The notes under the pieces: model-generated
Database searches by the model: none
Told to the model about the DNA's origin: nothing
Seen by the model: the letters and a program-made list of their open reading frames with translations, nothing else
NCBI GenBank assembly: GCA_006503535.1
Contig: QYRS01000001.1
Location: 3,596,001 to 3,660,000 of the forward strand
Origin: Arthrinium phaeospermum
Lineage: Eukaryota; Ascomycota; Sordariomycetes; Amphisphaeriales; Apiosporaceae
Direction of reading: 5' to 3'
Length of the DNA stretch: 64,000 nucleotides
Shown: positions 8,456 through 38,597 of the stretch, piece after piece
Layout of the letters: every line of letters begins with the position of its first letter
Numbering within the stretch: position 1 is the first letter of the stretch
Made by a program: the position numbers and the translations under genes

Positions 8456-8654
8456 GAAAGCAGAGCCGCTTTCGACTGCCAAAAGCTTATCCCATTGCTT
8501 CTCTCACCACAGTAACTTGCCAGTCCACCAACCAGCCTCTACTTGCTCGTGTAAGTGCTACCAAGTCTATTCAGTCACTCGTTCGACAGAAACATCCGAT
8601 ACAACATCTACATTCGTTATACCTACCCACCTACCTAAGTCCTAAGTCATAATC

Positions 8655-9620
8655 ATGAGGGCCTCTACTCTTTTCTCCGTCGTGGCCATGGCCACCGGCA
8701 CCATCGCCACCTTTGGCGATGCTGGCCCTCCCACCAAGACACCCCAGGGCGACGCCTCGTCCGTCTCGGACCTCATCACCTCGGTCTCGGGCGCCATGTC
8801 GCAGCTCGACACGTCCATCAAGGCCTACGACGGCAAGGACGCGTCCAAGGTCAAGACCGACACGGAGCACCTCGTCTCCACCATCAAGTCGTGCGCTTCC
8901 TCGCTCAAGGAGTCCGGCAAGGAGATCACTCTCCAGGAGATCTCGGGCCTGCAGCCGCTCATGTCCGGCATCAACACTATCGGCCAGGGCCTGGCCAGCG
9001 ACTTTGAGAAGAAGAAGACGGAGTTTGAGCAGTCGGAGCTCTGCAACGTTATCCAGGGCGGCCTCCAGAGCATCGGCAAGGAGACCAAGAAGCTCATGGA
9101 TGGCGTCGTCGGCAACTGCCCCCAGGAGGCCAAGACAGCCGCCGCCAGCCTCGGCGATGGCGTTGTCAGCACCCTCACCAAGGGCGCCGACCTGTTCAAG
9201 GCATTCCACTGCATGCCCTCGCCCCCCAACGGCGGCTCCAAGCACAACAACCCCCCGGCTCAATCCTCGGCCGTCGCCTCTGCCTCGGCCTCGGTCCCCG
9301 CCGCCCCGGCCACTCCCCCTAAGCAGTCGGTCGTCGCGCCCCCGCCCGCGGCTGCCCCTGTCACTGTGACCGCTACCGTCACCGCGCCCTGCCTTTGCTC
9401 TTCCAGCGCGGCGCCCCCGCCCGCGGCTCCCGTTCCCGGCACGACCAAGTCGACCCCTGCCGCTCCCTTCCCTACTGGTCCCTCCAAGACCACTGTCGCT
9501 GGCAGCACGGGCGGCATCAAGCCCACAGCCACTGGCACTCCCATCGTCACCGCCGCTGCCGTGCCCAACGCCCTGGCACCCATGGGTGTTGTGGCCGGTC
9601 TCTTTGCTTTGATGCTTTAA
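8655..9620 (+). CDS. HsbA-family (hydrophobic surface-binding / galactomannoprotein-like) cell-wall protein, GPI-anchored
   Basis: Single exon, 321 residues. Residues 1 to about 20 form a signal peptide with a hydrophobic Ala/Thr/Val core. Residues about 33-185 make an all-helical domain with regularly spaced hydrophobics, the pattern 'L-S-L-D-I-Y-G-D' near its start and paired cysteines (one in KSCASSLK, one in SELCNV). This matches the HsbA family, whose founding member binds hydrophobic surfaces and helps recruit degradative enzymes. Residues about 205-300 are Pro/Ala/Ser/Thr-rich, as expected of an O-glycosylated wall-spanning stalk. The C-terminus ends in a short hydrophobic segment preceded by small residues, a likely GPI-attachment signal. 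It probably sits at the cell surface. Third-codon positions are strongly C/G-biased, suggesting high expression. Confidence 0.88.
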   Translation: MRASTLFSVVAMATGTIATFGDAGPPTKTPQGDASSVSDLITSVSGAMSQLDTSIKAYDGKDASKVKTDTEHLVSTIKSCASSLKESGKEITLQEISGLQPLMSGINTIGQGLASDFEKKKTEFEQSELCNVIQGGLQSIGKETKKLMDGVVGNCPQEAKTAAASLGDGVVSTLTKGADLFKAFHCMPSPPNGGSKHNNPPAQSSAVASASASVPAAPATPPKQSVVAPPPAAAPVTVTATVTAPCLCSSSAAPPPAAPVPGTTKSTPAAPFPTGPSKTTVAGSTGGIKPTATGTPIVTAAAVPNALAPMGVVAGLFALML

Positions 9621-12214: not shown

Positions 12215-12675
12215 TTACTGGAGGATCATGTTTTGTTGGGAAATGACTCAGTTATCATTGATTGTATAGTATGAGCAAAGCCTAGCCTGCCGGATACCTA
12301 AGGCTTCTTTGACAAAGAACTTTCAATGGGTTGGCGACGAGAAAGCTGGCGCGAAACGGGGCGACGTCGAGCAATTCCCCGTCACTCATAAATTCATGAC
12401 CCCTATTCAATACCTACATCTCAAACGCCGTCGAGCAAGTATAATTATAATAATTTGAAATTTGGAATTTGAAAAAGGATAGAAAACAAGATTGGCAGAA
12501 GCATTCCCAACACCCAATACACCACAATCCAAACGCCATAAGCTTCCCATCCCACAAAGGAGACATTTGATATTTGAAACCCCAACCAACATAGATGTAT
12601 CCCAGTATCCGACTCCCACCTATTCTTCCTCCTTTACAGAAGGAAAACCTCGCAATATGTATCAATAAATATCCA
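12215..12675. other. Spacer between tRNA-Glu and the NRPS 3' end
   Basis: AT-rich non-coding stretch holding the 3' untranslated region of the NRPS. No further gene or repeat seen. Confidence 0.5.
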
Positions 12676-15600
12676 TCAAATAGCCAATTGCGCCACGACC
12701 TCGGCACACGTCACTTCGTTCTCCCGTCCCATCAGGCCCAGCACGCTCTTCAGGCAATCTAGCGCGCGCCGGGCGTCCCGCTCGTACACGACCGAGCTCC
12801 AGAACGAGAGCGTGACATCCAGTGTCCCGCCGCCCAGTTCCGAGACGGCGACCACGACATCGTACTGTAGGAAGGTAGGTAATTAGCAAAAGCACAAATA
12901 AGTAATAAGTGATGCCATGTATCCAAACAGGAAATGATTGACTTACTGCCATGGGGTCGGGCGAAGAGAATGCCTCAAACGTGATTTGGTGCTGCTGCTG
13001 TTGACGCTTAACACACGTTACAGCAGAAGCATCGCGACCGTCTTTTCCTTCATTGGCATCATCGCCATGGAAAGCCGCGAGAATATCCGCATCGTCAAAC
13101 TTGCGCATATTGACTAGCGTGCTGATCCGCCGATCGAGCCCGAGCCCGAGCTCCGACGGCGCGACGTGCGAGTGCGGCAGCGCCTCCAAGACGGACGCGT
13201 GGATGCCGCGCACGAAGCGCGGCAGCGACGCCGCCGCCAGGTCCGCCGCGCGGATACGCTGGGGCACGATGTTGACGAGGAAGCCCAGCGCCTCCGAGGG
13301 GATGATGGCGCGGGCGCTCGAGAGGTAGGCAAAGACGGTGTCTTGGTTGTTGGCGATGGCCCCGTCATGTGGGCACATGGCTTGGAGGACGAGACCCCAA
13401 GCCGCGTACACCGAGGAGGGCACCGTCGTCTCGTTGGCCTGGCAGAAATCGAGCAGCTTGTCGCAGCTGATCTGGCAGTGGAGTTCCTGTAAATCGGCAC
13501 GCGCCGCGGTGTTGCTGCCATCCGCAAAGGATCTGGTGAGCGGGAAGGGCCGAGGTTGGATAACGTCCATCTCAGTCTTCCAATAAGCGGTGGAGAGCTT
13601 GCGGTCCAATGACTCAATCTGAGAGACGTAATCTTGCAGCGAAGGGCCCGGTCCGAAATCGAGCGTTCCAGAGTACGCGCTGGCCAGCTCTTCGAACATG
13701 GTCATCAGTGAGAACCCGTCGGTGATGGCATGGTGTATGTCTATACGGCACAGGACTCTACCAGACGGTGTCTTGGCAATGGTGACTTGGTGCATTGGGC
13801 TGAGTTCAGTCCAAACTGACGCATGCCCCTGGTGATGGTTTTGTAAATCATCCGATTCTTCCACCTCAATGTGCGAGACTTTGGCGATGTGGTGCTTGAG
13901 GATCACTTGTCTCATGGTGTCAATGAAGACGGTGCGAAGGGCAGGGTGGCGGTCGACGACCTGTTGCCAAGCTCCATGAAGTAGCTCGGTGTCTACCTTG
14001 CGTCCTCCTACTTGTTGCGGAAGAATCTCGATAATCTGAGAAATATTATAGTAGCCGGAGCTCGGGCTGTCTTTGCAGGCTTGGAGCAGCTCTCTCTGGG
14101 AGCTAGTCGTGGGTAGGCTGACCTCCACCTCATTAGGGTCGAAGGGCGCAGGCATCTCGTCCAAGAAAGACGACTTGCCCAACGTTTCTCCGCTTCTCTC
14201 GGAGCTGGTCACGCTCTGGGTGGCGTAGGCCTCGTCCACCTTGGTCTCAGCCAGCGCAGCGATCTTGGCAATGGTTTTGTGTGTCAAGATATCTAGAACA
14301 GAGACCTGCAGGCCACTCTTGGTCGCAGCGGTGGCAAGTCTCATGGCCGAGATGGAGTCGCCGCCCAGCTTGAAGAAGCTGTCGTCGACCCCGATGTCCG
14401 TCTCTTTCACGCGGAGCACCTTGGACCAGACCCCGCGCAGGTTGCGCTCAATTGCCGTCGAGGGCTCTCGTTTGGTGGCGACGTCGTCGGCAAGAGAAAA
14501 GGTGCGAATCATCTCAGTCGGCAGGGCCGATACGAGGTCTCGGAGCGCCCTGCGGTCTCGTTTTCCAGCCAGACTAAGCGGGATCTCGCGAAGGGGAACG
14601 AAGATGGACGGCATCATGTAGGATGGTACGGACGCGGCCAAGCTGGCCCTCATGTTGCGGAGAGTCGCGTGTAGCTCCGGAGGAAACCCGGTTTCCATGC
14701 ATGCATCAGGCTCGGAGCCGACTGCCACGAACATGGCCAGTGCCAAGCCACTTCTCCCCGGCAGGGTCACGGCCTCCACTGCGAGCTGGGAGATGGAAGG
14801 AGGACAGCAGAGGCTGGCGTGGTGTTCGATCTCGCCAGTCTCGACACGCTGGCCTCTGATCTTGACTTGCGTGTCCTTTCTCCCCAGATAGTCCAAGCTC
14901 CCGTCCGGATTGTATCTCACGAGATCGCCCGTTCGGTACAGGCGCTTAGGCGCACTGAAACCGGGCCATGTGACGTTCTCCAAGAAGGCATCCGACGTGT
15001 TCTCGGGAAGCTTCAGGTAGCCTTCTGCAAGAAGTGGCCCTTCGAGCACGAGTTCACCAACAGTCCCAAGAGGCACGAGCTTGTTGGCATTGGAGGCCTC
15101 GACCACCCATGTCAGAGCGCCGCATCCGACTCCGATGTTAGCAGCCAAGTCGGTGGACTTGAGATTGGATCGCCCGACGCAGGCGACGGAGCATTCGGAG
15201 GGGCCGTAGTAGTTGTGCAGGGCCACATGATCAGCCCACACAGCGAGGTTGTCTTGCTTGACCGCTTCGCCTCCCAGGCATATCGTTTCCAAGGTTGGAA
15301 CTGCCTCGGGATACAATGTTGCTTCGAGGACCGACGGCGTCAAGTCGGCCGTGTTGACCTCCAACCTGTTGATGAAATCGGCGAGGTCGTTGAGCTTCTC
15401 GTCTTCAGTGGGCACGCAGACAGCCCCACCCCGCATTAACGAGAAGAAAATGTCGCTGAGACTGACGTCGAAAGTGTAGGATGAGAATTGTATGACGCGC
15501 GAGCCGGGACCGTATCCCATTGCGGCGCCGTAGTAGGATGCGCTGGTGCACAGCGACTGGTGTTCGAGCAGGATTCCTTTGGGCTTGCCGGTGCTGCCGC

Positions 15601-17400
15601 TGGTGAACTGGACAACAGCGACGTCACTTGGATGGGCGATTGGCAGCGCACTTAGCCTTCTTGATGCGGTCTTGCCAATGCGTGTGATTTCCTCTGGGCC
15701 GAGCGCCAGCACGGCTGCCATAGGGAGGAACTTGGGTGCGTGACGCGACGATGTGATGACAATGTCGGCATCGACATCGTCGATGATACTGTGCAAGCGG
15801 TCGATGGGGTGCTTGGGGTCCAAAGCCACGCAGGCTCCTCCGGATTTGAGGATGGCCATCATGACCACGACAGTCCAAGGAGAGGCCGCGAAGCAGTACG
15901 GGACCTTAGTACCGGGTCCAATGCCCAGAATGGCGAGGCGATGTGCCAAACGCGTCGAGAGCTCGTCGAGCTGACTGTAGGTCCAGCTGATCTCGGTGGA
16001 GCACACGGCCATGGCGTCGGGACGCGCCTTGACTTGGTCCTCGAATATCTGGTGAATGCAGCCTTGAACGGCATTAGGCTCAGTTTCATTCCACTGTTGG
16101 ATCGTGGAGATGCCAGCATCGCTGAGGATAGGTATGTTGCGCGCCGGCAGATCCAGTGCGGCTTCGGTAAAACCACCAAGCGCTTTCTCAAAACTGGTAG
16201 CCATGCTCTGGGCTTGGAAGTCCGAAACCATGTCCGTGTAGTAGCTAAGCGTGACGAATATTGACTTGTCGGACACTGCGACGCTGAGACTCAGCGGGTA
16301 CTCAGTGGGGTCATGAGCGCTGACTTGGTTGAAGTTGAGACTCCCAGATGACTCCTCGGGCGCGGACGAGGCGACCTGGTAGGACATGATGCTGTTGAAT
16401 AATGGCTGGCCAGCGAGCCGTTGCATGTCGGCCAGTGAGCAGTTCTGGTTGTCGAGGGCGTCGATGTAGTCGTTGTGGACCTGCTTGACCAAATCGGCCG
16501 TGGTGAGGCTATCCGTGAAGTCAACACGGCTTACGAGCATGTTGACGAAAAGACCAACCGCGTCGCGAATCCCGTCGACGGGTGAGTCGCGACCGGCGTT
16601 GAGGTATCCGTAGCAGACTTGGTCTGTCCCAGCGAAGTTGCGAAGCACCAGGGCCCACGCCGCCTGGAACACGTTGGCGAGAGTGACGGATCTCGCAGCG
16701 GAAAAGGCTCTCAATTGGTCAGTATGCGGGATCTCCATTTCAAGATCGCGGAGCTCTTTGATATCTCCCGAGCGTACGTCGCCGTTGACCATGCAAGGTT
16801 CAAGGCCGCCCAAGTATCCTCCCCAGTAGTCGAGGCTTGCTTGCCTATCTCGGCTCTGGAGGTATGCGACATATTGACTGTACAGTGGCCCACGCTCCGC
16901 GGAAAGGAGGCCTTCATAGGCCAGCTCCATGTCTCGAATTAGAATGCCGTTAGATGCACCATCGCCGACCGCATGATTGATAGCAATCTTGCAGTAAGTG
17001 GTGCTCGATTCTGTGGCATGGCAAATGATAAGCTGTGCTGGCGCTGTGACTTCCCATGCAAGACTGGGGTTCAGTGTCTTCGACTTGTCGAGCATTTCCA
17101 GGGCTTGCGAATTGGTCTCGCAAGTGAGCTCCACTGTCGTGTTGGGCATCGTCTTCAATACGACTTGGTTGAGGGCACTGTAATCGGACACAACAGCGAC
17201 GAACACGGTCCTCAAACTTTGATGACGGTTAACGACCGAGTTCCAGGCGGCCTTGAGCTTCTCAGTATCCACCACCTGGTTGTCGCTGCAGCTGAGTTGG
17301 TAAATGGCGTGGACGGTGTACAGTCCCGAGTCGATACTGCGGGACATCATCAAGGCCTCCTGGAGTGGCGTGGCGGGGTATATGTCTTCAACGTCCCCTA
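12676..17400 (-). other. NRPS module 6 and release domain: C6-A6-T6-C7
   Basis: C6 has INHAVGDGAS (first His is Asn). A6 has FTSGSTGKPKG and pocket residues D-V-S-L-C-G-Y-V-A-(K). T6 is KLGGDSISAM. C7, the last domain, has IHHAITDGFS with a complete catalytic motif; fungal terminal C domains of this position are known to cyclise peptides. An 82-nt intron (12946-12865, GTAAGT...CTACAG) lies near the end, after which the frame runs to the stop at 12676-12678. Confidence 0.87.
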
Positions 17401-20400
17401 CGGCGATGTGGTGCTTGGGTAGGGAGTCCTCAACAAAGCTGACAAACTCCTCATCCGCCATAGACAGGAGAGGGAAGTCGCTAACGGTCAACTCTCTAGA
17501 GTGACCTTGCAGGTCCTTGATGGCTTCCACTAGAGAATGTTCGGTGCTTGCTAGCCATTGTCGTATCTGGCTTTGATTGCGAAGACTGCGCGGCCACATC
17601 ATTGAGAAATTCAAGCGGCCATTCATCACGCCCGACGAGATCTCGAAGATCGACGAGCGCTCCAGATCAGAGCTGATATCGAGCGTGTCTGCGCCAAACT
17701 CGTCGCGGGGGACCATTTCGAAGAGCCCTTCAGCTCGTTCAAGTTGCTGGTACTGCCCGACGAAGTTCAACGTGATTTCCATGGGCCCGCTCTGGGCGAA
17801 ACGCTCTCTCCCATCGGGGTTCAAGAAGCGGGAGGCGAAGTAGGACCATCCATTCATCGGGGTGTTGCGGCGGCAGTCCTTCACCTTCCTGACGAAAGGC
17901 TTGACACCATCGTCATGATGGCTGGTAATATGCACAGGGGCCAGAGTGGTGAACCACCCCACGGTGGAGGAGATGTCAATCGAATCATCCCAGGATTCGC
18001 GACCGTGGTATTCTGTGAAGATGCTGGGCAGGTCCCGATCCCGGAAGGTGTGCGAGAAGGCATGGGTTAGAGCACCGATGAGGATATCAACAGTGTCAGT
18101 GCCCAGGACTTGGCTGCAGTTTGTCAGGAGCTGTGCCGTCAGCTCAGCACTGAGAGTAAATGAGTGTTCCTCTACCGCGCTGAATGTGTTGGCTTCAGTG
18201 AGCGGTCCCCAGTAATCCAGGGGCGGTTGTGGTGGGGTGAACGGGATCGCAGTTTCGGGTCGGATTTCCTCCGCTTTCTTCTGTTGCAGCGAAAGCCATG
18301 TCTGGAACGACAACGGCTTGCTTCTTTCTTTAAAGTTATCAGTCGTCAGATACTCCTCAAGATCGCTGAGAATTATTCGCCATGACACTAGATCGACGGC
18401 AAGATGGTGCGCGACCATGAATAAAACTTGTTTTCCGTCTTGGTCGGTGCAGATGTCAGCGGCGAACACTGGCCCATGGAAAACATCCAGGCCACTTTGG
18501 CTATCCGCCATGATTTGACCCATATCAGAAGTGGCTCCGTGGAAGGAGATTCTGCACGCCTCATCGGAATGAGGCATGATTGTCTGGACCCAGCGACCAT
18601 CTGACTTTTTCTCGAAGCGAGCCCTCAGCATGGAATGTCGAGACACCAGGTAGGAGAAAGCATCTCGCAGCTTTTCGGCATCCACCTCGCGGCTCAGGCG
18701 GACGAGGAAGCTCTGGTTAAACCGCCTGGGATCCATGGCGTCGGGGCAGATGGTGTCAATGAGCATTGTCTGAATTGGCGACAGGTCAAACGGAACGCCG
18801 ATCATCTCGTCAGCCAGTTCTGCCCGCTGACCTTCGGGCTGCGCAAGCGAGGCCAGGTGCCTGATCGTATGGCTCTGGAGCAGCTGTCTCACACTCAATA
18901 CAATGCTAGACGATTGAAGTCGGGATACCAGCTGCATTCCCGTAATTGAGTCACCTCCCAGGGCCATGAAGGTCTTGTCCAGTGGGATGTCCTCTGGTGT
19001 CAGGTTGAGAACCCGACCAATAGCTTGTTGTACAATACTCTCTGTCTTCGTCGTAGGTATCGTAGCGGCAGCGTCGTGCTTGAGAGAAAGCGCTTCAATC
19101 CTTGCGACGTCAGGATCAAGATCTTCCAGCCAGCGCTGAAGGATCTTGCGGTCGACTTTCCCAGACGAGGTGAGAGGAAGCCTGCTGATCGCAAACCAAA
19201 TGCGCGGGACCATGTACTTGGGAACCCGCGAAGGCATGGCTTCGCGCACTTCAGTGACGGCTTTGCTCATAGCTTCTTTGGTAGAGACATCTTCGATGAA
19301 CTCAAGTCTCTTTACCGAATCTGCAGTCGTGCCCGCCACGAGCGCTATGAGGGTGTTCTTGCAGGGCCCAGCTTTCGGGACAAGGGTAACGGACTGGGAC
19401 GACGGCAACATATTGAACAGATGGTTTTCGATCTCGCCCAGCTCAACCCTTTGACCATTGATCTTGACCTGGGCGTCCTTGCGACCAATGAACAGGAACG
19501 AACCATCGTCGGCATAGCGAACCAAATCACCCGTCTTGTAGAATCTCCGTGGCTCGCCGTGGCACCAAGCTGGGCCTGTAATGAACGCCGCAGCCGTCTT
19601 TTCTTCGTCATCCAGGTACCCGTTAGCTAGGATAGGCCCCTCGATCAGCATCTCGCCAACCATGCCAATAGGAGTCAGCTTGTCATGGTTGTCGGGATCC
19701 ACCACCCAAAGTCGGGCTCTTCTCGCAGGCCCGACATTCTGGGGCGTGCCCTGGGGTGTGATTTCGGTCCATGTGACAAACACCGTGGCTTCGGCTGGGC
19801 CGTAACCTTGCACCATCCGGACCTTTGAAGCCCACTTGTCGACGTCCTCCTGGAAAACGGCATCACCTCCGAGCTTGAGAGTGCGTAATGTCGGCACATC
19901 TTCCGGTTGGATCAATCGACTGACGGTCGGCGTCATGATTGTGAGTGTTACTTCAGCGTCCCGCATGGATCTCGCAAAATTGGCACCGAGTTTGTCTTCA
20001 TCAGAAGGCACCACTAATGTGGCCCCCACGGTCAGGGTCGCAAAGATGTTGTAGATTGATGCGTCAAACACATAGGACGGGAACTGGTAGACTCTGGAGT
20101 CCCGGTAAAGCCGATGCCCTCCAAGTCTAGCATCTGGGCGCTCGAACAGACTGCCCGGTGAGACATCATGACTCCTTTGCTGCGGCCAGTGCTGCCACTG
20201 GTGAAGATGACGTAGGCAAGTCTGTTGGGGTCTTTGGGAGGCAGTTGTGTCGTCTGCGTAGCTGATTGGTAGCTGGATAGTGTTTCGGCAGAGACAACCA
20301 GGGTTTGCCGGACCGATAGAGCTGGGGCTGTTTTGGAAGCCAACATGACTTTGGCGCTGGTCTGATCAACAATGTCCTGTCGGCGGTTCTCTGGGTGCTC

Positions 20401-23400
20401 GGGCTCAATTGACACAAATGCAGCCCCGGATTTCATCACTGCCAGCATGGAAACCACGGCCCATGCCGACTTCTCGAAGCATAGCGGAACAATATCCCCA
20501 GGACTGACGCCGGTGTCGATGAGCTTGTAAGCGAGATGTGTTGACAGCGACTCCAGATCAGCATATGTCATCGAGGCATCCCAGGAGTGAATCGCCTGCT
20601 TGTCTGGGTGTTCACGAGCATTCAGCTCGAATGCATCGTTCAGGGACGCCTCAACCGTGCCCGGGATATCAGCATTCCATTGATCGCAGATGGTGACGCG
20701 GTCCTCTGGGGTGAAGAAGTCCATATCGGACAGCTGACTCTCAGATTTGGCCTCGGAAAGCTGACGGATAACATGACTGAATTGGAAGAGGATGCGCTCA
20801 ACCTGGAACTTGGAGAGCAGGTGCGAGTCGAGATGTGCCAGGAGCTCCACACGACCTTCGTTTCCGATGGCGCACTCGACACTGAGTGGGAAATTATCGA
20901 ACTTGGTCAGCTCTCCGGACACGGGCACCAGCCACGGGTCGTTCTCCGATTCGCTCTTGGGCTGGATGACGAGTAGGTTGTTGAAATCGCAAGCATCTTC
21001 TGCCCCTTGGTTTAGAGTGCGAATGTTCTGGAGCCCGGCTTGCTCATATGGGATGGAATCAGCAGCTTGCTGCTGAACTTCTTGCAGGTACTTGGATATA
21101 GTCGTTGAGTTGTCGAGCTGGACCCTTACGGGGACTGTCGCAATAGTTGGTCCTACAATATGTTCGATGCCTGCGACAGGTGTGTTGCGCCCGTTCTGCG
21201 TCATCCCGAACACGACATCAGCGGTTCCGCTCAGCTTTCCAACCACCAACGCCCAAGCGGCTCGAACTATGGTAGCTTGGGTAATATCGTTATTTTGTCT
21301 GGCGGCTGGTAGTTCGATGGAATGTGACACTGATTGATCACTACTGGCTCGGTAGTCTGGGTGGGGAATTGATGGGAAGTCGGTTCGAGTATAACCATCC
21401 AGAGAGGTGCTCCAGTACTCGTCACTATCATTGACGTTCGAATTTGAGATATACCGGATGAAGTTGCTGTAAGGAGGCGTTCGAGTAGGTGCACCAGTCT
21501 GATAGGCTGCTTGCACCAAGTCGAAGAGCATGCCAGCCGACCAGCCGTCGTATGCCGCATGATGAGCAGTCCAAACGAACCAGTTCGCGGACCCATCATG
21601 GACAATGGCATATCTGGTAAGGACATCGCCTTCCGAGATGGACACTTGAGAGTCCTTCTCTAGGTAGCTTGCCAGGCTGGATTCGGCCTCGAACCAAGAT
21701 AGAGGTCGCTTGTATACGACTTGGCAGGTGCCGTTTAGCTCAGTATTGACAAGCGCTGTGCGGAGGATGGGCGTTACGGCATAAACGGCTTCCCAGGCTT
21801 GTTTGAAACGTGCCATATCGATATGGGAAGGAATTTGGAACGCCATGCGATTGACATAGGCAGTGTCGCTTGTCTGCGTGATGGCAATCAGCGCCTCCTG
21901 GAGGGGTGTTGCTGGATACGCATCTTCAACAGTATGTGTGAGCATTCCATTGATTTTCTCGACCTTGTCGATGACGCTTTGCTTGTTCGCCAGAAGCTCG
22001 AAGGGTGCCATCTCGCTTTCGGATTCAGCTGGCGCTGTTCCTGTCTTGATCTCCACCAGTGCGGCCAGCACGGAGAGCACTGGATGCGAGAACAACTGAG
22101 TCACTGAGATAGAGACGTTCTCACTGCGCATTAGCGATGCGACTCTCATCGCGGATAACGAGTCGCCTCCCAACTTGAAGAAATGGTCATCCGACGAGAT
22201 GGCGTCAGTGGGGATTCCTAGTATGGCGGCCCAGACTCCTTGCACGAACTTCTCGGCCTCGGTCGAGACTTGCTTTCCACCGGATCCTCGCAGTGAGTAC
22301 ATATCGACCCTCTCTTGAGAGAGTGACTCGGCGACCAGCAACATGGCTTTCCGGTCGGCTTTACCAGCTGCAGACTTTGGCAGGGATGTCATGGGGATGT
22401 ATAATGAGGGCACCATGTACGTCGAGACTCTTTCCGACAAATCTTTCTGTAACTTTGAGAGAGTATCTCTCAGACCGTCAGAAAAGACCGCAAGCTGCGG
22501 AGATGATGCATGGTTCTTTTCAAAGTCCGGAATACTGATGAAGGCCACCAAGCGCTGTACTGACGTCTTGTCGGTTTTGAGCACAGCAACAGCCGCCTCC
22601 GCATGCGCCGGCAGGCACTCGAGGATCTGGTGCTCGACCTCCCCGACTTCCATGCGCTGGCCGTGGATCTTGACCTGGCCGTCCTTGCGGCCGGCGTACA
22701 TGAGGTTGCCATCGTCGCGGTAGTACACCAGATCGCCGGTCTTGTAGATGCGATCGATTGCCCCAGGGGTGGTGGACCAGGCCGGCGTGGACTTGAAGGC
22801 CTCTTCCGTCTTGTCGGGGCTGTTCAGGTACCCCCTGGCTAGCGCGGGGCCGCTAAGAACGAGCTCGCCCAGTGAGCCGATGGGCGCCAGCAGGTCGTGG
22901 TTGGTGGGGTCAACCACCCAGGTCTGAGTGCCAATGGCTTTGCCAATCAACCCAGCGTCATTCGGGTTCTGTAATTTTCCAATCGAAGCAAACACTGCCG
23001 TTTCTGTTGGTCCGTAGCCGACAAGGAGATTGAGTTTATCAGACCATTTCACAATCAAGCTCTTTGGTACAGCCTCTCCCACAAGTGCCAGTGTATCCAG
23101 AGACGGGAGGTTCTCGGGCGACAAGAGCTGTACCACGGAAGGCGTGAGCATCGAGAAGTTCACCCTCATTCGTCGCATTGCGCCTTCAATGTCGGCCGAC
23201 TTTTCCTCCTCCGACGGGACGCAAACGCAGCCTCCCGACACCAACGTCGCCAGCGTCTCCGTGATGGACGCATCGAAAGAGTATGACGCGAATTGAAGAG
23301 CACGCGTCGAACTGTTCAGGCCAAGACCGGGCGCGTGTTCGGCAATGTTACTGGCAAGGGATCGGTGCTCAATGACAACACCCTTGGGCTTGCCGGTCGA

Positions 23401-29400: not shown

Positions 29401-32400
29401 ATGCATGGTGCAGACCAAGTATTGTTTATCATCCTCGGCGATTAGCGAAAAACGCGCCAGTGCATCTCCGTATGCCATTGGCTTTTTCTTGTCGATAGCC
29501 AGATACTCATGGAGCGACTCCCCGCTCTTGATGTCCATCCGGTCGTTGTACACCACCTGGTACCGCTTACCCAATGCGCTGACAATTCTCGTTCGCAAGA
29601 TGTCGTTGTTCCTCCTTACAGCCTTCCAAGCGTCTATGTACGCCTCGATATCTGCGTCTTCGGAGATGGAGGTCACGAACTGCAAGACATAGGCACCAGG
29701 CTGGCCTAGAGTGATTGACAACATGGCGTCTTGCAGTTCGGTGCAAGGATACACATCCTGGATCTGGCCGGCCTTCATCTTGTGCGCCTCTACTGCGACG
29801 TTCGTAACTTCGGCTTTCATCTCTTTGACGAAGATATCATGAGTGTCGTTGCGCTCGGGGTCGTCGGATTGAGTGTTGATGAAGGAAGCCACATTGGCAA
29901 GTTCCTGGACGGTGGGGTGGTTAAAGACGTCCACCACAGTCATGTGTACATTTGCCTGTCGCGCCGCGGCTACGAGTCGAATGGCCTTAATTGAGTCGCC
30001 GCCACGGTGGAAGAAGTTGTCGGCGATTGACAGCGATGAAGGCTCCACGCCCAATGATGTAGCAAAGAGGTTATGTAGGGCCAGCTCGATGGGTGTTGTT
30101 GGGGGCAAGCCTCGGAAAGGCCAGTCAATGCGTAGCGGGCAACACTTGACTCGGGAATATGACAGGCCAGATCAATCAGAGCTTTTCGGTCGATCTTTGT
30201 CGAGGCGCTGAGTGGTATGCGGTTGACTGGTATGAACATGGAGGGTATCATGAATGAGGGGACCTTGGTCGCCATGGCCGCCGCCAACGCCTGAAGGCTC
30301 TTGAGCAAGTCGTCCGGCATGGGTAATGTTTGCGGCTTGCTCGTCAGGTCGGTAGAGTCGGACGTGTTGATGAAGGCGACGAGTTGCCTGTCCCCGGCCT
30401 GGCCCGAACGAGAGATCACGGCGGCCGCTACTTGCTTCAATGTGGACATGTTGGTCATGCACTGCTCAACCTCGCCCAGCTCCATCCGCTGGCCGCGCAG
30501 CTTCACTTGATCGCCATCCTTGCGCCCGAGGAAGTTGAGGGTCCCATCTGCATTGAGACGTACGAGATCGCCCGTGCAGTAGAACCGAGAGGTGAAGCCT
30601 TGCTGGCTCAGGACGCTGTTGGAAGTGAACCATGCGGGATTCGAGATGAATGCTGCTGCAGTCTTGGCAGGATCATTGATATAACCTCGCGCTACAGGAG
30701 GTCCGCCCAAGAGCAGTTCACCCGGTGAGCCCCTGGTGCGAGTCTCTGTGGATTTCTTGGGTCCACAACCCAAAGCGTTTGGCCTAAGCGATGTCCCAAG
30801 TTCGACCCGCTGCGAGCCGCGTCGATCCTGGGATGCATGAGGGCGACGATGGAGCACTCGCATGGCCCGTACGCGTTCTTGAGAACCACCGAGTCAGACC
30901 AGGTCGCCACGTCGTCGGCGGACATGGCCTCGCCACCCAGAAGTAATGTGCGGAGGTTCGGGACATCGGATGGTGTCAGGAGTCTCGCAAAAGACGGGGT
31001 GAACAGTGCCCACGTGCAATTGGCGCGTCTTATAAACTCAGCAGTATCGTAAGATCGCTCGCTGTCATTGGCGACGCAGATACATCCACCGGACATGAGA
31101 GGCATGATGGTTTCGCAGTAGAATGCGTCCCATGCATAGGAAGAGAACTGCAGGACTCGAGTCGTGTTGTTGATGTCTGCTGCTTTGGTCAAGGGCTCCA
31201 CGTTACTCGCGATGGCTTGGTGCTCGATGACCACGCCCTTCGGCTTGCCAGTGCCACTGGTGAAATTGATGTAAGCGGCATTGTGTGGCTGCACGGACGT
31301 GGTGTTGGGGCGGTCGTCAATCATCGCGCTCATGTTCATAGAGTCCACAACGATGAGCCTGACTTGTGCGTCGAGGCTGTCACGACACTTGTCAATGGTC
31401 GCCGGTGAGACCAGACCTATGCGGGCAGCCACATCGTCGGCTATACCCCTTAGACGGACTCGGGATGCGATGGGTCAAGGGCGACGACGCAGCCGCCGGC
31501 CTTCCAAACCGCCATCATGGAAACAATCGTCCAGGCCGACTTCTCGAAGCATAGAGCAACATTGGTCTCAGGGCCCACATCCATGCCCAAGAGCTCGTTG
31601 GCTAGCTTGGTAGACAGAAGATCCAACTCGGCATAAGTGAGACTCATGTCAGTCGAGAATACGGCGGGGGCAGTTGGCATCATCTGCACTCGTCGCCTGA
31701 ATGTGTCATGAAGACACTCGGACTTGGGAACGGGCGCCGGGGTGTTGATGTCGATGTAGTGAGTGTCTCGTGGCCAATGAGATCTATACTGCCGATCTTA
31801 ACGTCTGGTTGGCCATGATAGTCTGCAGAGCGAGAGAGAGCTCCGATTTCTGAACGTAGGATGGGCTTAACGCCGATGTCCATGAGCCATGTACGCAGAA
31901 AACGATGTACTTGTGCAGTGTCTCGTGGCCAATGAGATCTATACTGCCGATCTTAACGTCTGGTTGGGCCATGATAGTCTGCAGAGCGAGCACGAGAGCC
32001 TCTCCGATGTTCTGAACGTAGGATGGGCTTAACGCCGATGTCCAGTGAGCCATGTACGCACAGAAAACGACTTTTGGTTGAGCTCGAAATGGAGCGTGAG
32101 TGCGAACTCGGTAGGATCATGGAACTCCAGTGGCCGTAGAGATATGGATGCAGGGGAGTCCTCCTCCTCAGGGGTTCGTTGGAAGTCAATGACAGTGTTG
32201 AACAGTGGCTGACCACCAAGCTCCAAAGCATGTTGGATTTCCGTCAAGGAGCAGTACTGGTGATCCAGGCTTTCGGTCAGCATGTTGTGCATGGACTTCA
32301 CCGCATCGATTGCGGCTACGCCATAGTCAACCTTGGTATGGGCAACGAGCATGTTGACAAGAACGCCGGCAATCTCCTCGATCCCATCGATTGGTGCATT

Positions 32401-35400
32401 GCGTCGGATGTGAGGTACCGAAGGACACCTTCTCCATCGAGGTATAGGCACTGAGCACCCTGGCCCAGGCCACCTGAAGGATCGCAAAGGGGCTCACACT
32501 ATGCTGCTTGCAAAAGGCATGAACGATGTCGGCGGAAATTCCGAGTTCAAGAGGTTGTATCTCGAGAACATTTTCTTCGGGCGTATCGGAAAGATTCGGG
32601 AGACAGCATGACTCTGCACCAGTAAGTTCGGCCCCCAGAACTCCACGTCTGATTCCTGGCCACGCCCCTGCATATACTGCAGAACCTGGCTGAACCGCGG
32701 CACACTTCTGTTAGATCAAGCCCTTCAGCGTAAGCCCGACTCAGGTCTTTGAATAGGACGTGGCAAGAATTTGCATCAAGTATGCAATGGCTGAAGTCGA
32801 ATCTTATTAGAGCCCGACCTCCTGCGGTGCTGCAAATGCTGAGCCGGTGCAGGAGCTGCCCGGAGGGGTAGTCGTTCTTCCCTAAACCCTTCCACAGCAC
32901 GAGGGCTTCGTCGACCGACTGAGACGTGGAAATGTTGATTTCGGCACCACTCGAGGCAAGACAACTTGCACGTGGTACCCGGTGCTGGTAGGGTGGTCGA
33001 CAAAGACGGTCCGCAACACGGGGTGGCGGTTGACGACTTGCATCCAAGCTTCACGTAAACGCAACACATCGATGGGCGTTCCAGCAGCTGAGACGACCTC
33101 TAGTGTCTCATGGACTGCATAATTGCCCGACTGCTTCTCTTGCGCCAGCAGCAGGCCTTCCTGTATGCCTGTGCAGGGGTAGGCTTCTTCAATCTCAAAC
33201 GGGCGATCCCGTGGGCGCAGAGGTGCCAGTCGGGATTCCAGGGCGCTAATAAACGTTGCCAGGTTATCGTAATCTAGCTCAGGAGAGGAAGTCTGTTAAA
33301 CTGTACATCTTTGTCATGGCTGACGCCTCGGCGGCGAGGTTGGTCAAGGTAAGTTCAACCTTCTTGACCCACTCGCCAATTTGATCTTGACGGCCCGACT
33401 TAGAGTTGAATAGGAAGTCAAACACCACTTGGCCGCTCTTGACTGCCGTCGTGATCTCAAACAGTGCCATTCGCTTGACATCGGTTGCGAAATCAGGGGC
33501 TGGGAGGGGCAGCATTCGGAACAAGCCGTCTGAGCTCTCCAGCTGCTGATATTGCCCTTCATAGTTGAACATGACTTCCATTGACAAGTTGTCAGGAGAT
33601 CCTTGAGCCATGGCATTATCCAAGTAGCCTTTGCCGGGTCCCTCTTGGCGCCTCCTTGTGTCCTTGGTAGCTCGAATCGTCTGCATGAGGTCCACATGCT
33701 GACCGGCCCACGTAATGGGAACGGAAAGAGGCCAAATGGCTGTAAACCATCCAACAGTGCCAGTCGCGTCCATTTCGTGGAGGGCTTCGTGGTCTCGTCC
33801 ATGACCTTCGACGAAAACAGCAGGTACATCACGGTCCGTGAACACCTCAGCGAACGAATTGAGAATAGCCGCAACGAACAAATCGGTTGGTTCTGTCCTC
33901 AGTGTGTTGTTGCAGGCCCGAGAACAAGACCCGAAACATGTTGGTCCAGCGAAAAGCTAAGCTGACGGCTGTCTTGTTCAAGATTGAGGTTTTCCGTGAA
34001 GTCCCAGTAGCTCCAGTCCATGGTGGGATGCAAGTGTCGGATATGATCCTCGTTTGTAACTGCGTTATAGGACTTGGCAGCACGCTCTTTCGTGAGTTGC
34101 AGGTAGGGTGTTGTGAGGGTATTGCTGAGTCTAGTGCCTGACAGTTTATCTTCAAGGTCTTGAATGATAATCCGCCAGGAAACAAGGTCTATGACCAGGT
34201 GATGGGCAACCATGTACAGATACTGCTTCTCGCCCTGTATCATGAGGGATGCTGTGAAAACAGGTCCATCTTGAATGTTGAGTCGGCCCTGAACCGTGTT
34301 TGCATGTTCCTCCATTGAAGCATCATCCGACAGCTCAGCCTTGTCGAAGGTAAAGGATTGATGAATCAGAGCATCATTCGGCCTTGAGATTTGTTGCGTC
34401 CACTTTCCATCAGATGACTTCTGGAAGCGAGCACGCAACATGGAATGCCGGTTGACAAGAACTTCAAGCGCACCACGAAGGCAGTCAAACGAAATCGGCT
34501 TTCGCAACTCCAGCATGAAACTCTGGTTCCACCGGTTGGACGCGCCCTGGGTAGTGAAGAAAAGACTCTGGATCGGGCTGACCTCAACAGGCGTGTCATA
34601 TATCTCCTCGAGTTGGTCAGATGTCGAAGAGGAACCAATTGCCTTGACACAGGTTGCCAGGCTGGCGAGTGTCTGGTCACGCAGTACGTCCTGGACAGTG
34701 ACCAGAAGCTTTTCCGCCCTGCAAAGCGACATGACGCGCATGGCTGAGACTGAATCTCCGCCCACCGACAAGAATGTACTTGACCGAGCGATTGCATCGT
34801 TAGGAAGGTTGAGCACGCGGGCCCAAACCTTTTGGATCTTCCGTTCGGTCTCCGACATCTTCTTCTTTGCCTCTTCCTCTTCTTCGCTTCGCACTTCCAT
34901 GGACGACCGAGATACTCGAATGAAGTCTTCGGGGCTCATCCCATCGACCCACTGCTGGAGACCCTTGGTATAGACCTTGCCCGAGGTCGTGATGGGTAGC
35001 TCCTGCAAGACGGCCCAAAGGGTAGGAATCATGTAGATGGGTAGCGCATCTGCCAGCTTCTGTCGAATCTCGGAGACAACCAGAGCTGTAGCACTGCCAC
35101 AGTCGTCCTCTGCGAACTGTATCTGGGTCCCTATGGGCTTGATCTCTCCATGAAGAGATACGAGACCCACAAGCCGCTCCTTGCAGAGACCCTTGTACCC
35201 CTTGACGACCGTGCATTGCTTGACCTGTGCGTGGGAAGCGATCTGATACTCCACCTCGCCCAGTTCCAGCCGCTGACCACGTAGCTTGACTTGGTTGTCC
35301 TTCCGGCCCAGGATCTCAACGAAGCCATCACTGTTTAGGCGGCCCAGATCACCTGTACTGTAAAGTCGCGAGTAGGGCTCGAAAGCCTCGTGAGACCATG

Positions 35401-38400
35401 TCGGCCTGGCGAAAAACACCTCCGAGGTCTTCTCGTGTGCGTTGAGATAGCCCCGCGATACTCCTGGGCCTTGGACGCTAATCTCCCCAATACACCCAAT
35501 GGGCATCAGTTTATCGTGGTCCGACGTGCTCGTGATCCAAACAGGCCCCGTCATAGCTTTTCCTACCAAAGACGGTTGAGAATTGGCGGTGAGTTGTGGC
35601 GAGCATGTCGACATGATGGCACTCTCAGCCGGGCCATAAGCGTTGAAAACGGCAACAAACGGTGCCCATTCCTCAAGTACGGTCCGGGACAGTGGTTCTC
35701 CTCCTAGCACAAGGACCTCGAGGCTTGGTACCTGTCGTGGTGTGATCATGCTCATGACTGTCGAGGTAGCAAGAACCCAGTTGCAGCGTGTGCGCTCGAT
35801 GAAGCCAGCCAAGTCGTTCATCCTATCTTCTTCAGACGGAATGCACACGCAGCCTCCGAGTAAAAGGGCAGCAAACATGTCGAATATGCTGGCATCGAAA
35901 GTATGGGCGGCAAACTGGAGGACGCGGGATTTCTCGTTCATCTGCAGTGCGGTCCCATAGGCCTGGCAGTTCGTTGCAATCGCTCGATGAGCTGACACAA
36001 CTCCCTTGGGAACACCTTCTGCAAGTCAGCAAAAACAAATCTCGATTATGTTTGGATATATCTCACCAGTGCTACCCGATGTGTACACCACCAATGCTGC
36101 AGAATCAACCCCCACCTCGGCACACGGTACGTCCGAGACTTCTGGAAGACTGTCGAGAAATCTGCCATCTACAGGTACCACGGCTGCTGTCCGGTGCTGA
36201 AACAAGTGCTGGTGCTCCGTGGATGTGATGATGACAGTGGCTGTTGTGTCATCAAGGATGGTGTTGAGGCGATCTGAGGGGTGGTTGGGGTCTAGCGGGA
36301 CGGCGGCACCCCCTGCTTTCAGGATTCCGAGAACAGCCACGACGGTGTACAGCGACTTGGAAAAGCAGTAGGGCACAAAAGTCTCAGGCTTCACGCCAAC
36401 AGATAACAAGTGGTGAGATAGTTGTGTTGACAGTGTATCGAGTTCCCTATAAGTTAGTTGCCCATCGTGGGCTTCCACGGCGGGTGCCGTAGGACATAAT
36501 GATGCCCGTTCTTGGAAAATGCCGTGTATGGTTGACGTACCTTGAGAGAACCTACCGTGTTTTGAAGTCGACTCGATATTCCAGTCCACCATCTTTTTAT
36601 ATTGGTTTGCCGAAACAAAATCCAATTGCCCAATCTTGCAGTCGCTATGAGACACTACGGCCGTGATAACTTGAGCAAGTGTTTCGGCTAGTATCTCGGC
36701 CTGTCCTGGTGATATTCGGTGCGTCCAATAGTCCAGCTGCACTGAAGGGACATCGGATGCCGTGTCGACCACAACCGCTATGTCGTACTGTTTCCGAACA
36801 TTAGCCACCACAAGTGAAGGAACCCCAACTGTTTCTTGCATACCTCTGTAGGCGAGTACACGTTAAGCTCTTTAACCCCAAGGCCGGCTTGGGAGTCATC
36901 CGAGTCCAACGACAGTGCGTTCTGGAAGCCTATTACAGTATTGAAAACAAGATCTTTGGGAAGTTGGGCGGCCTTTTGTATATCGGCAAGAGAAAGATGT
37001 TGGAAGTCCAGACTCTCGGTGGTGCGGTCGGCTACCTCCTTGAGAAGTGACATGACCGATTTTGACTGGTCAAATTGGACCCGACACAACATCGTGCTCA
37101 CGAAGGCACCTGTGATGGACTCGATAGAATCGATCGGGGTATCCCGGCCGGACGCTGTGTATCCGAAGCAGACATCGTCTTTGTTCAAATACATGCGCAA
37201 AACGACCGCCCAGGAAACCTGGAACAGATGGAAGAGAGTGATCTCATGGCGGCGGCAGAAATCGGAGATATCGTGTGTGAGAGACAAAAGATGAACTTGC
37301 TGAGACATCAGGTCACTCTCTGGAGAAGCAGACATGTCTCCGTCTAGGAGAGTGGGGAATTGGCAAGGCTCTGCGCCGCGAAGATACTCGGCCCAGTACT
37401 GTAGACCGCTGGAAGAGGGTTGACGGAGAATGTTGTCAACAAACGATCGGTATACCGGCCCAGACCCAGAAGCCAGCTTGCCATCGTATGCAAGCTTCAG
37501 GTCGCGGATCATGATTTCGAGCGATCCACCGTCGGTGATGGCGTGGCTGATGTCCAATCGGGCGTAATGCTTGCCAGACGGCGTGGCAATGACGGTCAGG
37601 CGGTGGCCCAGTTCGCCGAACTCGACCAGCGTGTGGCCGTGATCACCGAGGAACTGGAGACGCTCCTCACTGGCATCGTCGGTCATGATGCGCAAAGCTC
37701 GAAAGTCCGCCTTGACACGCCGCAGGACAATTTGCTCAAATGGCGACTCGGCCGTGTTGCCTTCAACAAAGACGGTGCGCAGTGCAGCATGGCGGTCTAC
37801 CACTGCTTGCCATGCTTCCTGGAGGCGCCTCACGTCGATTCTGCCGTTCTGTTTGGAGGTGGACAGCTCGAACAGGATCCGCATCATGTAGGCGCCAGGC
37901 GTCTTTGCCTGGGCAATGAGGATGCCCAGCTGCGTTGGCGTGCAGGGGTACATATCTTCCACTTCGGTGCCGGCGCCATGTTTAAACGAAAGATGATCGA
38001 GACGATCATGGCGCTCATCCGCGATCTTCAGATTGTTGATTTTAGTCTCAATTGTCTCGGCAGGCGCGACTTCCTTCAACGAGTGTGGTTCTGGTTGGGG
38101 TTGAGGTTGTGGCTGCTGTGGTGAAGGTGAGGCGGCAGCTGTGGCTGGTGCTGCCACCTGCTTGGCGGCTGATGTGAGCCCTGAATGGTTGACCCGCGCA
38201 TGACATCCTTGACCAGCACTTTGATGCCGGCCCGCCCCAATAAGGACGCGACTTTCATGGCGGCCACGGAGTCTCCTCCGAGACTGGCGAACGATTGTGT
38301 TTGGCTGATTAGTTCCATCGGGATGCCTAGGGCTTTCGACCACACCTCGTGGATTTGCTGCCCCAGACTCGCAATTGCGGACGCCCCGAATTGCTCTTGG

Positions 38401-38597
38401 GCACTGGCGCTCGACCTGGCCCGCAGCCTGGCCTTCCCTGGAGAGTTCCCCGCGTTCATAGCGGGCGTCGTCTCCGCTGTCAGGTAGTTTGTATCGCTAG
38501 AGACTCCCATTGTTGCTAGGTAGTTTAAGTAGCAAGTGTCGGGACTAGACGGGGGGTCAGTCGTGTGCGTAAGCTGCAGTGGCTGGGTGTCTGTCAT
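12676..38597 (-). CDS. Giant six-module non-ribosomal peptide synthetase with N-terminal T-C and terminal C domain
   Basis: A cytosolic assembly-line enzyme of about 8,500 residues. The order read from motifs is T0-C1-A1-T1-E1-C2-A2-T2-C3-A3-T3-E2-C4-A4-T4-C5-A5-T5-E3-C6-A6-T6-C7. Six A domains imply a hexapeptide; E domains in modules 1, 3 and 5 imply alternating D and L residues. No thioesterase or reductase follows T6, so release by C7 (probable macrocyclisation) is expected. Start: ATG 38597; stop TGA 12676-12678. Introns supported by splice signals and restored motifs: 36843-36788, 36066-36016 and 12946-12865. The frame is interrupted by apparent single-base indels near 38180, 33916, 33282, 32950, 32704, 32634, 32415 (two), 32058, 31457, 30733, 30118, 29043, 28918 and 20118, and by a tandem duplication at 31752-32068. 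Each break falls between segments that continue the same domain, so it is one gene, either mis-sequenced or decayed. The product is unknown. The divergent ABCC transporter is its likely partner. Confidence 0.9.
17500..21940 (-). other. NRPS module 5: C5-A5-T5-E3
   Basis: C5 has the canonical AHHAAYDGWS. A5 has FTSGSTGRSKG, where the usual Pro of the A3 loop is Ser, and pocket residues D-A-Y-M-K-G-G-V-F-(K). T5 is ALGGDSITGM. E3 has VAHHLAVDLVSWR and EYHGRESWD instead of EGHGR. A single missing G near 20118 breaks A5 between A3 and A4 core motifs. Confidence 0.85.
22040..25210 (-). other. NRPS module 4: C4-A4-T4
   Basis: C4 (after an E domain, so DCL expected) has ISHALMDGAS. A4 has FTSGSTGKPKG and pocket residues D-A-T-L-A-V-G-V-F-(K). 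T4 is KLGGDSLSAM. No E domain. Confidence 0.87.
25290..29780 (-). other. NRPS module 3: C3-A3-T3-E2
   Basis: C3 has the canonical MHHSIYDGWS of an LCL-type domain. A3 has YTSGSTGTPKG and pocket residues D-V-M-L-A-V-G-V-L-(K). T3 is SLGGDSISAM. E2 has TAHHLVIDLVSWR and EGHGREPWD...STVGWFT. Two frame breaks near 29043 and 28918 lie in C3; from A3 onward the frame is clean. Confidence 0.85.
29880..33220 (-). other. NRPS module 2: C2-A2-T2 (most damaged part)
   Basis: C2 has SHCILDANS in place of HHxxxDG (the final Gly is Ala). A2 has a shortened A3 loop (TSGTGKPKG, one residue missing) and one extra residue in GRKDGDQVKLRGQR. Its pocket residues read D-A-C-F-L-G-A-I-V-(K). T2 is HRGGDSIKAI. There is no E domain. 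About nine frame breaks and a duplicated segment lie here. Confidence 0.75.
31752..32068. repeat. Imperfect tandem duplication inside the NRPS (two units of about 151 and 166 nt)
   Basis: Units 31752-31902 and 31903-32068 are the same sequence from the C2 tail/A2 linker. The left unit differs from the right almost only by missing bases (about ten, in small scattered gaps). In gene direction the right unit comes first and reads as a good C-domain tail; the second unit is broken. Excising one unit makes the C2-A2 linker continuous in frame. Confidence 0.9.
33290..36530 (-). other. NRPS module 1: A1-T1-E1
   Basis: In A1 the core A3 loop TSGSTGxPKG is split by an intron (36016-36066). Pocket residues read by eye in Stachelhaus order are D-A-F-A-V-G-A-I-M-(K). 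T1 is SVGGDSVSAM. E1 has VAHHLVIDLVSWR and EGHGRD with GTVGWFT, all the residues expected of an active epimerase. A one-base break near 33916 interrupts E1. Confidence 0.8.
36620..38470 (-). other. NRPS N-terminal loading-type segment T0-C1
   Basis: T0 carries the phosphopantetheine site in SFASLGGDSVAAM. Helix IV of T0 is crossed by a one-base break in the G run at 38179-38181. A Pro/Gln/Ala-rich linker follows, then C1 with the active-site motif ISHAITDGGS (first His replaced by Ser, catalytic second His and Asp present). No A domain precedes T0, so T0 must be charged in trans or by A1, or it may be vestigial. The 56-nt intron at 36788-36843 lies in the C1 tail and its removal restores the family's 'PTEYDI' strand. 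Confidence 0.8.

What the first reader, a model, noticed from the sequence alone, without database searches (positions are those of the whole stretch)
12676..38597. Six-module NRPS with epimerases in every odd module and a terminal C domain
The motifs show E domains after T1, T3 and T5 only, predicting a strictly alternating D-L-D-L-D-L hexapeptide. C7 in place of a thioesterase is known in fungi to make macrocycles. I do not recognise a characterised fungal product with this exact layout, so an undescribed cyclic hexapeptide pathway is plausible.
Basis: partly seen in the sequence, partly recalled or inferred. Interest (0 to 1): 0.85.

Follow-up and report, generated by a model that had tools for sequence, protein, structure and literature searches.

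The report
Apiospora-type alternating D/L hexapeptide synthetase
A fungal genome, most likely from Apiospora or a close relative, carries a giant enzyme gene laid out to string six amino acids together in alternating mirror-image forms; its makeup differs from the known enzyme with the most similar layout, so the peptide it makes may be undescribed.

Summary
The observation largely holds. The frame is broken, mostly at 29-34 kb; a tandem duplicate there differs by indels only, which points to assembly error. Intact collinear relatives exist: Apiospora kogelbergensis has the same 23 domains, A. arundinis T0 into C5. The genome is thus Apiospora-like.

The nearest characterised layout is Fusarium NRPS4 (fusahexin, cyclic, alternating D/L). 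It has five A domains and ends C-T-C, as do 87 of the 101 proteins first listed. This gene does not look like its orthologue: 34% identity, no A code shared by position, E1 and E3 of other lineages. The terminal C does not join fungal cyclising C domains (AU p 0.003), and C1 is of the type that follows epimerases. The alternating core is well supported; cyclisation and starter are unproven. Orthologues are in databases; I found no product. Verdict: new variant of a known kind.

The parts
12662..38510 (-). NRPS gene, T0-C1-A1-T1-E1-C2-A2-T2-C3-A3-T3-E3-C4-A4-T4-C5-A5-T5-E5-C6-A6-T6-C7
   Evidence: Pfam, local HMMs, collinear relatives P0123, P0242, P0243
38181..38360 (-). T0, N-terminal carrier domain without an A domain (LGGDSVAAMK)
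   Evidence: Pfam PP-binding 1e-09; 77% identical to A. arundinis
36590..37959 (-). C1, entry condensation domain (SHAITDG), groups with post-epimerase C domains; interrupted by intron 1
36788..36843 (-). intron 1 (GTATGC...ACAG, 56 nt)
34931..36529 (-). A1 (code DAFAVGAIM); contains intron 2 (36066-36016, 51 nt)
34646..34852 (-). T1
33330..34591 (-). E1 (HHLVIDLVSW, VEGHGR, VGWFT); change of frame inside
32059..33190 (-). C2 (SHCILDA), frame broken
30150..31725 (-). A2 (code DACFLGAIV), frame broken; limits approximate
29890..30096 (-). T2
28645..29760 (-). C3 (HHSIYDG, LCL type), frame broken near 29.0 kb; lower limit by alignment to P0123
26959..28494 (-). A3 (code DVMLAVGVL)
26695..26901 (-). 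T3
25315..26634 (-). E3 (HHLVIDLVSW, VEGHGR, VGWFT)
24010..25185 (-). C4 (SHALMDG), post-epimerase type
22312..23856 (-). A4 (code DATLAVGVF)
22057..22263 (-). T4
20833..21927 (-). C5 (HHAAYDG, LCL type)
19115..20640 (-). A5 (code DAYMKGGVF), one change of frame near 20.1 kb
18845..19051 (-). T5
17510..18793 (-). E5 (HHLAVDLVSW, VGWFT)
16208..17389 (-). C6 (NHAVGDG), post-epimerase type
14513..16060 (-). A6 (code DVSLCGYVA), the A domain that NRPS4-type enzymes lack
14252..14458 (-). T6
13082..14113 (-). C7, terminal condensation domain (HHAITDG); does not group with fungal CT domains
31762..32070 (.). tandem duplicate in the C2-A2 linker: 144 of 144 aligned bases identical, ten gap positions, no mismatch; likely assembly artefact
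41112..46280 (+). divergent ABC transporter in pieces (TMD0_ABC weak and below its cut-off, ABC_tran, ABC_membrane, ABC_tran)

Best explanation
This is a large fungal NRPS of a lineage found so far in Apiospora and a few unnamed or distant relatives. Shown by sequence: six complete extension modules; epimerases in modules 1, 3 and 5; C domains of the post-epimerase (D-donor) type, C2, C4 and C6, exactly after each epimerase and of the L-donor type, C3 and C5, in between; no thioesterase; an ABC transporter transcribed divergently next door. Inferred: the enzyme assembles a D-L-D-L-D-L hexapeptide core that the terminal C7 releases, by cyclisation or by capture of another nucleophile, and that the transporter exports. 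T0-C1 is the remnant of an ancestral loading module (A0-T0-C1) whose A0 was lost. C1 is still conserved, so T0 either is charged by another enzyme with a small starter residue or is bypassed. The gene in this assembly is frame-broken, most likely through sequence error. Confidence is about 0.8 for identity and alternating core, about 0.5 for cyclisation.
For: Domain order and motifs. The careful C tree puts C2, C4 and C6 with post-E C domains and C3 and C5 with the LCL set. P0242 (A. kogelbergensis, 7908 aa) has the same 23-domain string; P0123 (A. arundinis) runs from T0 into C5; unnamed P0241 and P0243 cover A1-C7. The nine-letter A codes equal those of A. arundinis at 4 of 4 positions held, of Apx243 (P0243) at 5 of 6, and of the 47-71% identical relative P0122/P0040 at 3 of 6, with one letter changed in each of the others, which suggests a conserved product. 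A0-T0-C1 in P0122 and in the more distant P0167 suggests that A0 was lost. C1 identity (81-83%) is like that of other C domains (77-85%). The duplicated linker has 144 of 144 aligned bases identical and ten gap positions.
Against: The frame breaks could in part be real. T0 is the least conserved carrier domain of those compared (68-77% against 80-94% for T1, T3-T6; T2 not compared), which fits decay. C7 does not group with known cyclising domains, and its branch is long. No substrate can be read reliably from the codes. The comparison rests on proteins predicted from genomes; no expression or chemistry was seen.
Confidence: 0.78

Rival explanations
1. It is the Apiospora version of the widespread NRPS4/NPS4/Pes1 synthetase (fusahexin type), strongly diverged, doing the same job at the cell surface.
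For: Same E positions, a terminal C, and an adjacent ABC transporter; the genome's best match to FpNRPS4 C2-A2 is this gene's C6-A6 (39%), and no better NRPS4 candidate appeared for the two pieces searched. Pairing of E5 is not rejected (AU p 0.097).
Against: P0243 is 34% identical to FpNRPS4, which is 41-81% identical to six NRPS4-type proteins; 0 of 5 A codes shared by position; the 21 NRPS4-type E domains form one clade (97/92) without these, and E1 and E3 pairing is rejected (AU p 0.020, 0.027); A6 present, C-T-C end absent, another terminal C clade.
Confidence: 0.15
2. T0-C1 is a lipo-initiation unit as in echinocandin synthetase, so the product is an N-acylated hexapeptide.
For: The echinocandin-type proteins P0212 and P0211 also begin T-C and have six A domains; T0 serine and C1 motif intact in three Apiospora-type sequences.
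Against: C1 groups with post-epimerase C domains, and placing it with the LCL set that holds C1 of P0212 and P0211 is rejected (AU p 0.008). The nearest ketosynthase match on the contig is about 0.8 Mb away. No acyl ligase or acyltransferase was seen among the window ORFs scanned or the 20 of 49 flanking ORFs scanned; the search is not exhaustive.
Confidence: 0.15
3. The gene is a decayed pseudogene in this isolate and makes nothing.
For: At least eight changes of frame outside the duplication that introns do not explain, and a stop at 29005.
Against: Breaks are concentrated in about 5 kb; the two large ORFs (2990 and 2567 aa) have one break between them; the duplicate differs by indels only; all seven T cores and the E motifs are intact.
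Confidence: 0.12

Closest known systems
Apiospora kogelbergensis nonribosomal peptide synthase (P0242) and A. arundinis PG990_001714 (P0123)
   Same: Same domain string (P0242: all 23 domains; P0123: T0 into C5); aligned stretches 64-92% identical
   Different: No frame breaks in the predicted proteins; no product assigned in the listings or in the A. arundinis genome paper passages seen
Fusarium NRPS4, fusahexin synthetase (FpNRPS4 P0327; F. graminearum P0288)
   Same: E after T1, T3, T5; alternating D/L; terminal C; ABC transporter in the cluster
   Different: Five A domains, ends E-C-T-C without A6, no T0-C1; other A codes; E1, E3 and terminal C of other lineages
Pyrenophora teres f. maculata PTMSG1_02982 (P0310)
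   Same: Six A, three E after T1, T3, T5, terminal C
   Different: No T0-C1; its E3/E5, C3/C5 and C4/C6 are close copies of each other, and its terminal C is in the CT clade: apparently a separate origin
Echinocandin-type synthetases (P0212, named putative echinocandin B synthase; P0211, McfA)
   Same: Begin T-C, six A domains, end in C
   Different: No E domains; C1 in the LCL set; terminal C in the CT clade

Membership tests
NRPS4/NPS4/Pes1 (fusahexin) family | A-T-E-C-A-T-C-A-T-E-C-A-T-C-A-T-E-C-T-C(-T), five A domains | tested here: not met
   window has A6 and an extra T0-C1
NRPS4/NPS4/Pes1 (fusahexin) family | E1, E3, E5 each pair with NRPS4 E1, E3, E5 | tested here: not met
   E1 and E3 pairing rejected, AU p 0.020 and 0.027; E5 not rejected, p 0.097
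NRPS4/NPS4/Pes1 (fusahexin) family | A-domain codes of the fusahexin synthetase | tested here: not met
   0 of 5 positions share the nine-letter code with Fgram or FpNRPS4
NRPS4/NPS4/Pes1 (fusahexin) family | cluster with an ABC transporter | tested here: met
   ABC transporter in the NRPS4 cluster per PMC10967133 passage. Whether the transporters are orthologues was not tested
fungal cyclising C (CT) domain | terminal C groups with the terminal C of echinocandin-type and NRPS4-type synthetases | tested here: not met
   AU p 0.003 against one clade; long-branch caveat
fungal cyclising C (CT) domain | terminal C with intact HHxxxDG and no thioesterase | tested here: met
   HHAITDG; no thioesterase match
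fungal cyclising C (CT) domain | makes a macrocycle | not testable with these tools
   needs chemistry
fungal multimodular NRPS with alternating epimerases | E domains with HHxxxDxxSW followed by post-epimerase type C domains | tested here: met
   3 of 3 E motifs; C2, C4, C6 in the post-E clade (C2 through relatives)
echinocandin-type lipo-initiation | C1 in the LCL-like set with C1 of P0212 and P0211 | tested here: not met
   AU p 0.008
echinocandin-type lipo-initiation | acyl ligase or PKS in the cluster | tested here: inconclusive
   none seen among the ORFs scanned; not exhaustive, 20 of 49 flanking ORFs

The most novel reading that the evidence does not exclude
A family of assembly lines that reached the strictly alternating D/L hexamodular plan independently of NRPS4. 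It enters through a D-selective C1 on a carrier domain that has lost its own A domain, and exits through a terminal C domain that arose from D-donor C domains rather than from the fungal CT lineage. It would then use an unrecognised loading route (a D- or achiral unit supplied in trans, or re-entry of a finished chain onto T0) and a second type of C-domain chain release.
Probability: 0.22. Interest if true: 0.65.

Novelty: new variant of a known kind. Interest (0 to 1): 0.45.

Why it matters
If true, the same alternating D/L hexapeptide plan evolved at least twice in fungi (perhaps three times with the Pyrenophora protein), which suggests selection for such peptides; the fusahexin pathway is tied in a review to surface hydrophobicity (PMC10967133 passage). 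The six-A enzyme is also a natural comparison for the view that NRPS4 uses its last module twice: here module 6 has its own A6. The C7 lineage makes it testable whether fungal C domains gained chain release more than once. A. arundinis is reported to make an unassigned family of features predicted as NRPS peptides of seven, six or five residues, several at high levels (PMC10999098 passage): a possible product.

Tried and rejected
NRPS4 orthology was the first idea; it was set aside on architecture, identity, codes and trees, although E5 pairing was not rejected. Lipopeptide by analogy with echinocandins: weakened. A0 moved elsewhere in the genome: the A0-T0 stretch of P0122 gave 59 matches at 24-48% identity, those spanning 600 residues or more at 28-41%; none reaches over a comparable length the 47-71% seen between P0122/P0040 and the window elsewhere. 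No A0 match lies upstream of T0. A Clonostachys rosea 'NPS4' paper turned out to concern a peptaibol synthetase (PMC7513725, passages). NCBIfam gave generic NRPS and adenylate-forming enzyme matches. PDB sequence search for C7 gave 8 distant matches, PvdL best; for C1 29 matches, bacterial C domains best, TqaA among them. Searches for an Apiospora/Arthrinium peptide with a linked NRPS showed none in the listings; the library holds open-licence papers only. The FastTree run had weakly supported groupings; I rely on the careful trees for E and C and claim nothing from the A tree.

Dropped before counts: the C tree (47 rows) took 9 labels and left out seven echinocandin-type rows, Trichophyton C1, and the Fgram, Crosea, Diaporthe, Usnea, Conioch, Bzei, Apx241, Rel167 and Tricho rows; the E tree (41 rows) left out Fgram; truncated Aarun C5 and the A5 N-terminal piece were left out. 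Window E1, C2 and C3 are split by frame breaks and are represented in the trees by relatives. first aligned the duplicate with overlapping ends (165 identical, 24 gap positions), without overlap, gives 144 and ten and is the one to use. All three homologue lists show the best 120 only, with length limits (up to about 5232, 7303 and 9385 aa, worked out from the tool's stated factor).
Full report
What is there. The window is G000 contig C1:3596001-3660000 of a 48.4 Mb assembly in 19 contigs. Two large minus-strand ORFs (12662-20365, 2567 aa; 20032-29004, 2990 aa) and a chain of shorter ones up to 38624 carry NRPS domains. With local HMMs and motif scans the order is T0-C1-A1-T1-E1-C2-A2-T2-C3-A3-T3-E3-C4-A4-T4-C5-A5-T5-E5-C6-A6-T6-C7.

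Integrity. Two breaks are ordinary introns (36843-36788 and 36066-36016). Intact relatives aligned to the window change frame near 38.18 kb, six times between 33.9 and 30.1 kb plus twice inside a duplication, and near 20.1 kb; the aligned stretches abut or overlap there, leaving no room for introns. There is also a stop at 29005-29007 between two open stretches. The duplication is two adjacent copies, 32070-31917 and 31905-31762; 144 of 144 aligned bases are identical and ten positions are gaps (found). Evolved copies would be expected to show substitutions, so I read this as noise in a poorly resolved patch. A real lesion is not excluded.

Relatives. With the 2990-aa ORF as query only proteins up to about 5232 aa could appear; the closest by alignment were two collinear unnamed proteins, P0002 and P0040. 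Queries with P0002 and then P0123 reached longer ones. P0123 (A. arundinis PG990_001714, 5363 aa) runs from T0 into C5 and its aligned stretches match the window pieces at 66-92%. P0242 (A. kogelbergensis, 7908 aa) has all 23 domains in the same order. P0243 and P0241, unnamed, cover A1-C7; P0243 matches at 78-94%. The organism is therefore Apiospora or close kin; this is inferred from protein identity only. A0 thus looks ancestral and lost in the Apiospora-type sequences.

Nearest known layout. [quoted passage not shown] NRPS4 of F. graminearum is described with five modules, the fifth used twice, in a cluster of four genes with an ABC transporter (PMC10967133, passages); PMC11677700 speaks of a two-gene cluster (passages). 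The original report (Westphal 2021) was seen only as a reference. Of the 101 proteins first listed, 87 have five A domains, three E domains after T1, T3 and T5 and a C-T-C or C-T-C-T end; this count includes strings with a C or C fragment in front and five with a short A5 match. FpNRPS4 (P0327) and F. graminearum P0288 are A-T-E-C-A-T-C-A-T-E-C-A-T-C-A-T-E-C-T-C. Among all proteins then held, many of them partial, only P0241, P0242, P0243 and P0310 (Pyrenophora teres f. maculata) end E-C-A-T-C with at least five A domains.

Is it NRPS4? FpNRPS4 is 41-81% identical over most of its length to six NRPS4-type proteins, from F. graminearum to a lichen fungus and a dermatophyte, but 34% to P0243. 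In a careful E-domain tree of 41 rows, the 21 NRPS4-type E domains form one clade (97/92). The E1, E3 and E5 of this family are separate, and holding them with NRPS4 by position is rejected for E1 (p 0.020) and E3 (p 0.027) but not for E5 (p 0.097). These tests came after a first tree and are modest in strength. The A codes differ at all five comparable positions. In the genome, FpNRPS4 C2-A2 finds this gene best (39%) and FpNRPS4 C7 finds another NRPS best (34%), so no clear NRPS4 was seen with these two pieces. I conclude: works like NRPS4, probably not a member.

C domains. In a careful tree of 47 rows, C3 and C5 fall with the LCL set; C2, C4 and C6 with post-epimerase C domains; C1 falls there too, although T0 has no E; C7 falls there on a long branch, not with the terminal C of FpNRPS4, Trichophyton, P0212, P0211 or P0310. 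Holding C7 with those is rejected (p 0.003), as is C1 with the LCL set (p 0.008). The groups were suggested by earlier trees, so the p-values are somewhat optimistic. The terms LCL, DCL and CT, the label EcdA (mine, for P0212) and the reading of A codes by GrsA numbering are recalled, not from a call.

Starter. T0 keeps GGDS, and C1 keeps SHA[IV]TDG, in the window, P0123 and P0242; C1 is as conserved as other C domains, T0 less than the other T domains compared. A0-T0 of P0122 found no orthologue in the genome. The nearest ketosynthase match on the contig is about 0.8 Mb away. Of 49 flanking ORFs of 130 aa or more, within 30 kb on each side, 20 were scanned, none of them in the outermost 10 kb on the left; hits were ankyrin, tRNA synthetase, beta-lactamase family, HET, COG2, bZIP and DUF families. 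So T0 is charged in trans by an unknown enzyme or is bypassed. I cannot decide.

Cluster. An ABC transporter in pieces lies at 41112-46280 on the plus strand, divergent from the NRPS: two ABC_tran matches, one ABC_membrane match, and a TMD0 match below its cut-off.

Substrates. Codes: A1 DAFAVGAIM, A2 DACFLGAIV, A3 DVMLAVGVL, A4 DATLAVGVF, A5 DAYMKGGVF, A6 DVSLCGYVA. A. arundinis is the same at 4 of 4, Apx243 at 5 of 6 (one letter in A6), Rel122 at 3 of 6 (A2, A4, A6; one letter each in A1, A3, A5). I assign no residues.

In print. The searches listed no paper that I could tie to this gene family; most listed papers were seen as titles and abstract starts only. PMC10999098 (passages) reports for A. 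arundinis an unassigned family of features predicted as peptides of seven, six or five residues.

Noticed in passing
window 47000-54000: AT-rich block (GC 9-31% per 500 bases) with TpA/ApT 1.02-1.26 and (CpA+TpG)/(ApC+GpT) 0.10-0.77 against 0.51 and 1.27 in the NRPS: the mark of repeat-induced point mutation. At 48-50 kb the G-C skew is +0.37 to +0.48, as if one strand had been mutated more.
   Followed up: partly
window 8646-9620 (+): ORF with an HsbA (hydrophobic surface binding protein A) domain beyond the 3' end of the NRPS.
   Followed up: no
window 750-2185 (-): Gene with a ULD_2 ubiquitin-like domain in two pieces.
   Followed up: no
L019:5854-7872 (C1:3591854-3593872): Beta-lactamase-family (PF00144) hydrolase in two pieces, about 15 kb beyond the 3' end of the NRPS; no link to the NRPS tested.
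   Followed up: no
G000 C1:1326971-1342759: A 5474-aa open frame with several C and A domains, a second large NRPS on the same contig; its best C-A stretch is 37% identical to FpNRPS4 C2-A2.
   Followed up: no
P0310 (Pyrenophora teres f. maculata PTMSG1_02982): Same six-A, three-E layout from what look like internal duplications (E3/E5, C4/C6 and C3/C5 nearly alike); apparently a third origin of the layout.
   Followed up: partly
P0122 and P0167, N-terminus: Relatives with an extra A0-T0-C1 loading module without an E domain; C1 of P0122 groups with post-epimerase C domains.
   Followed up: partly
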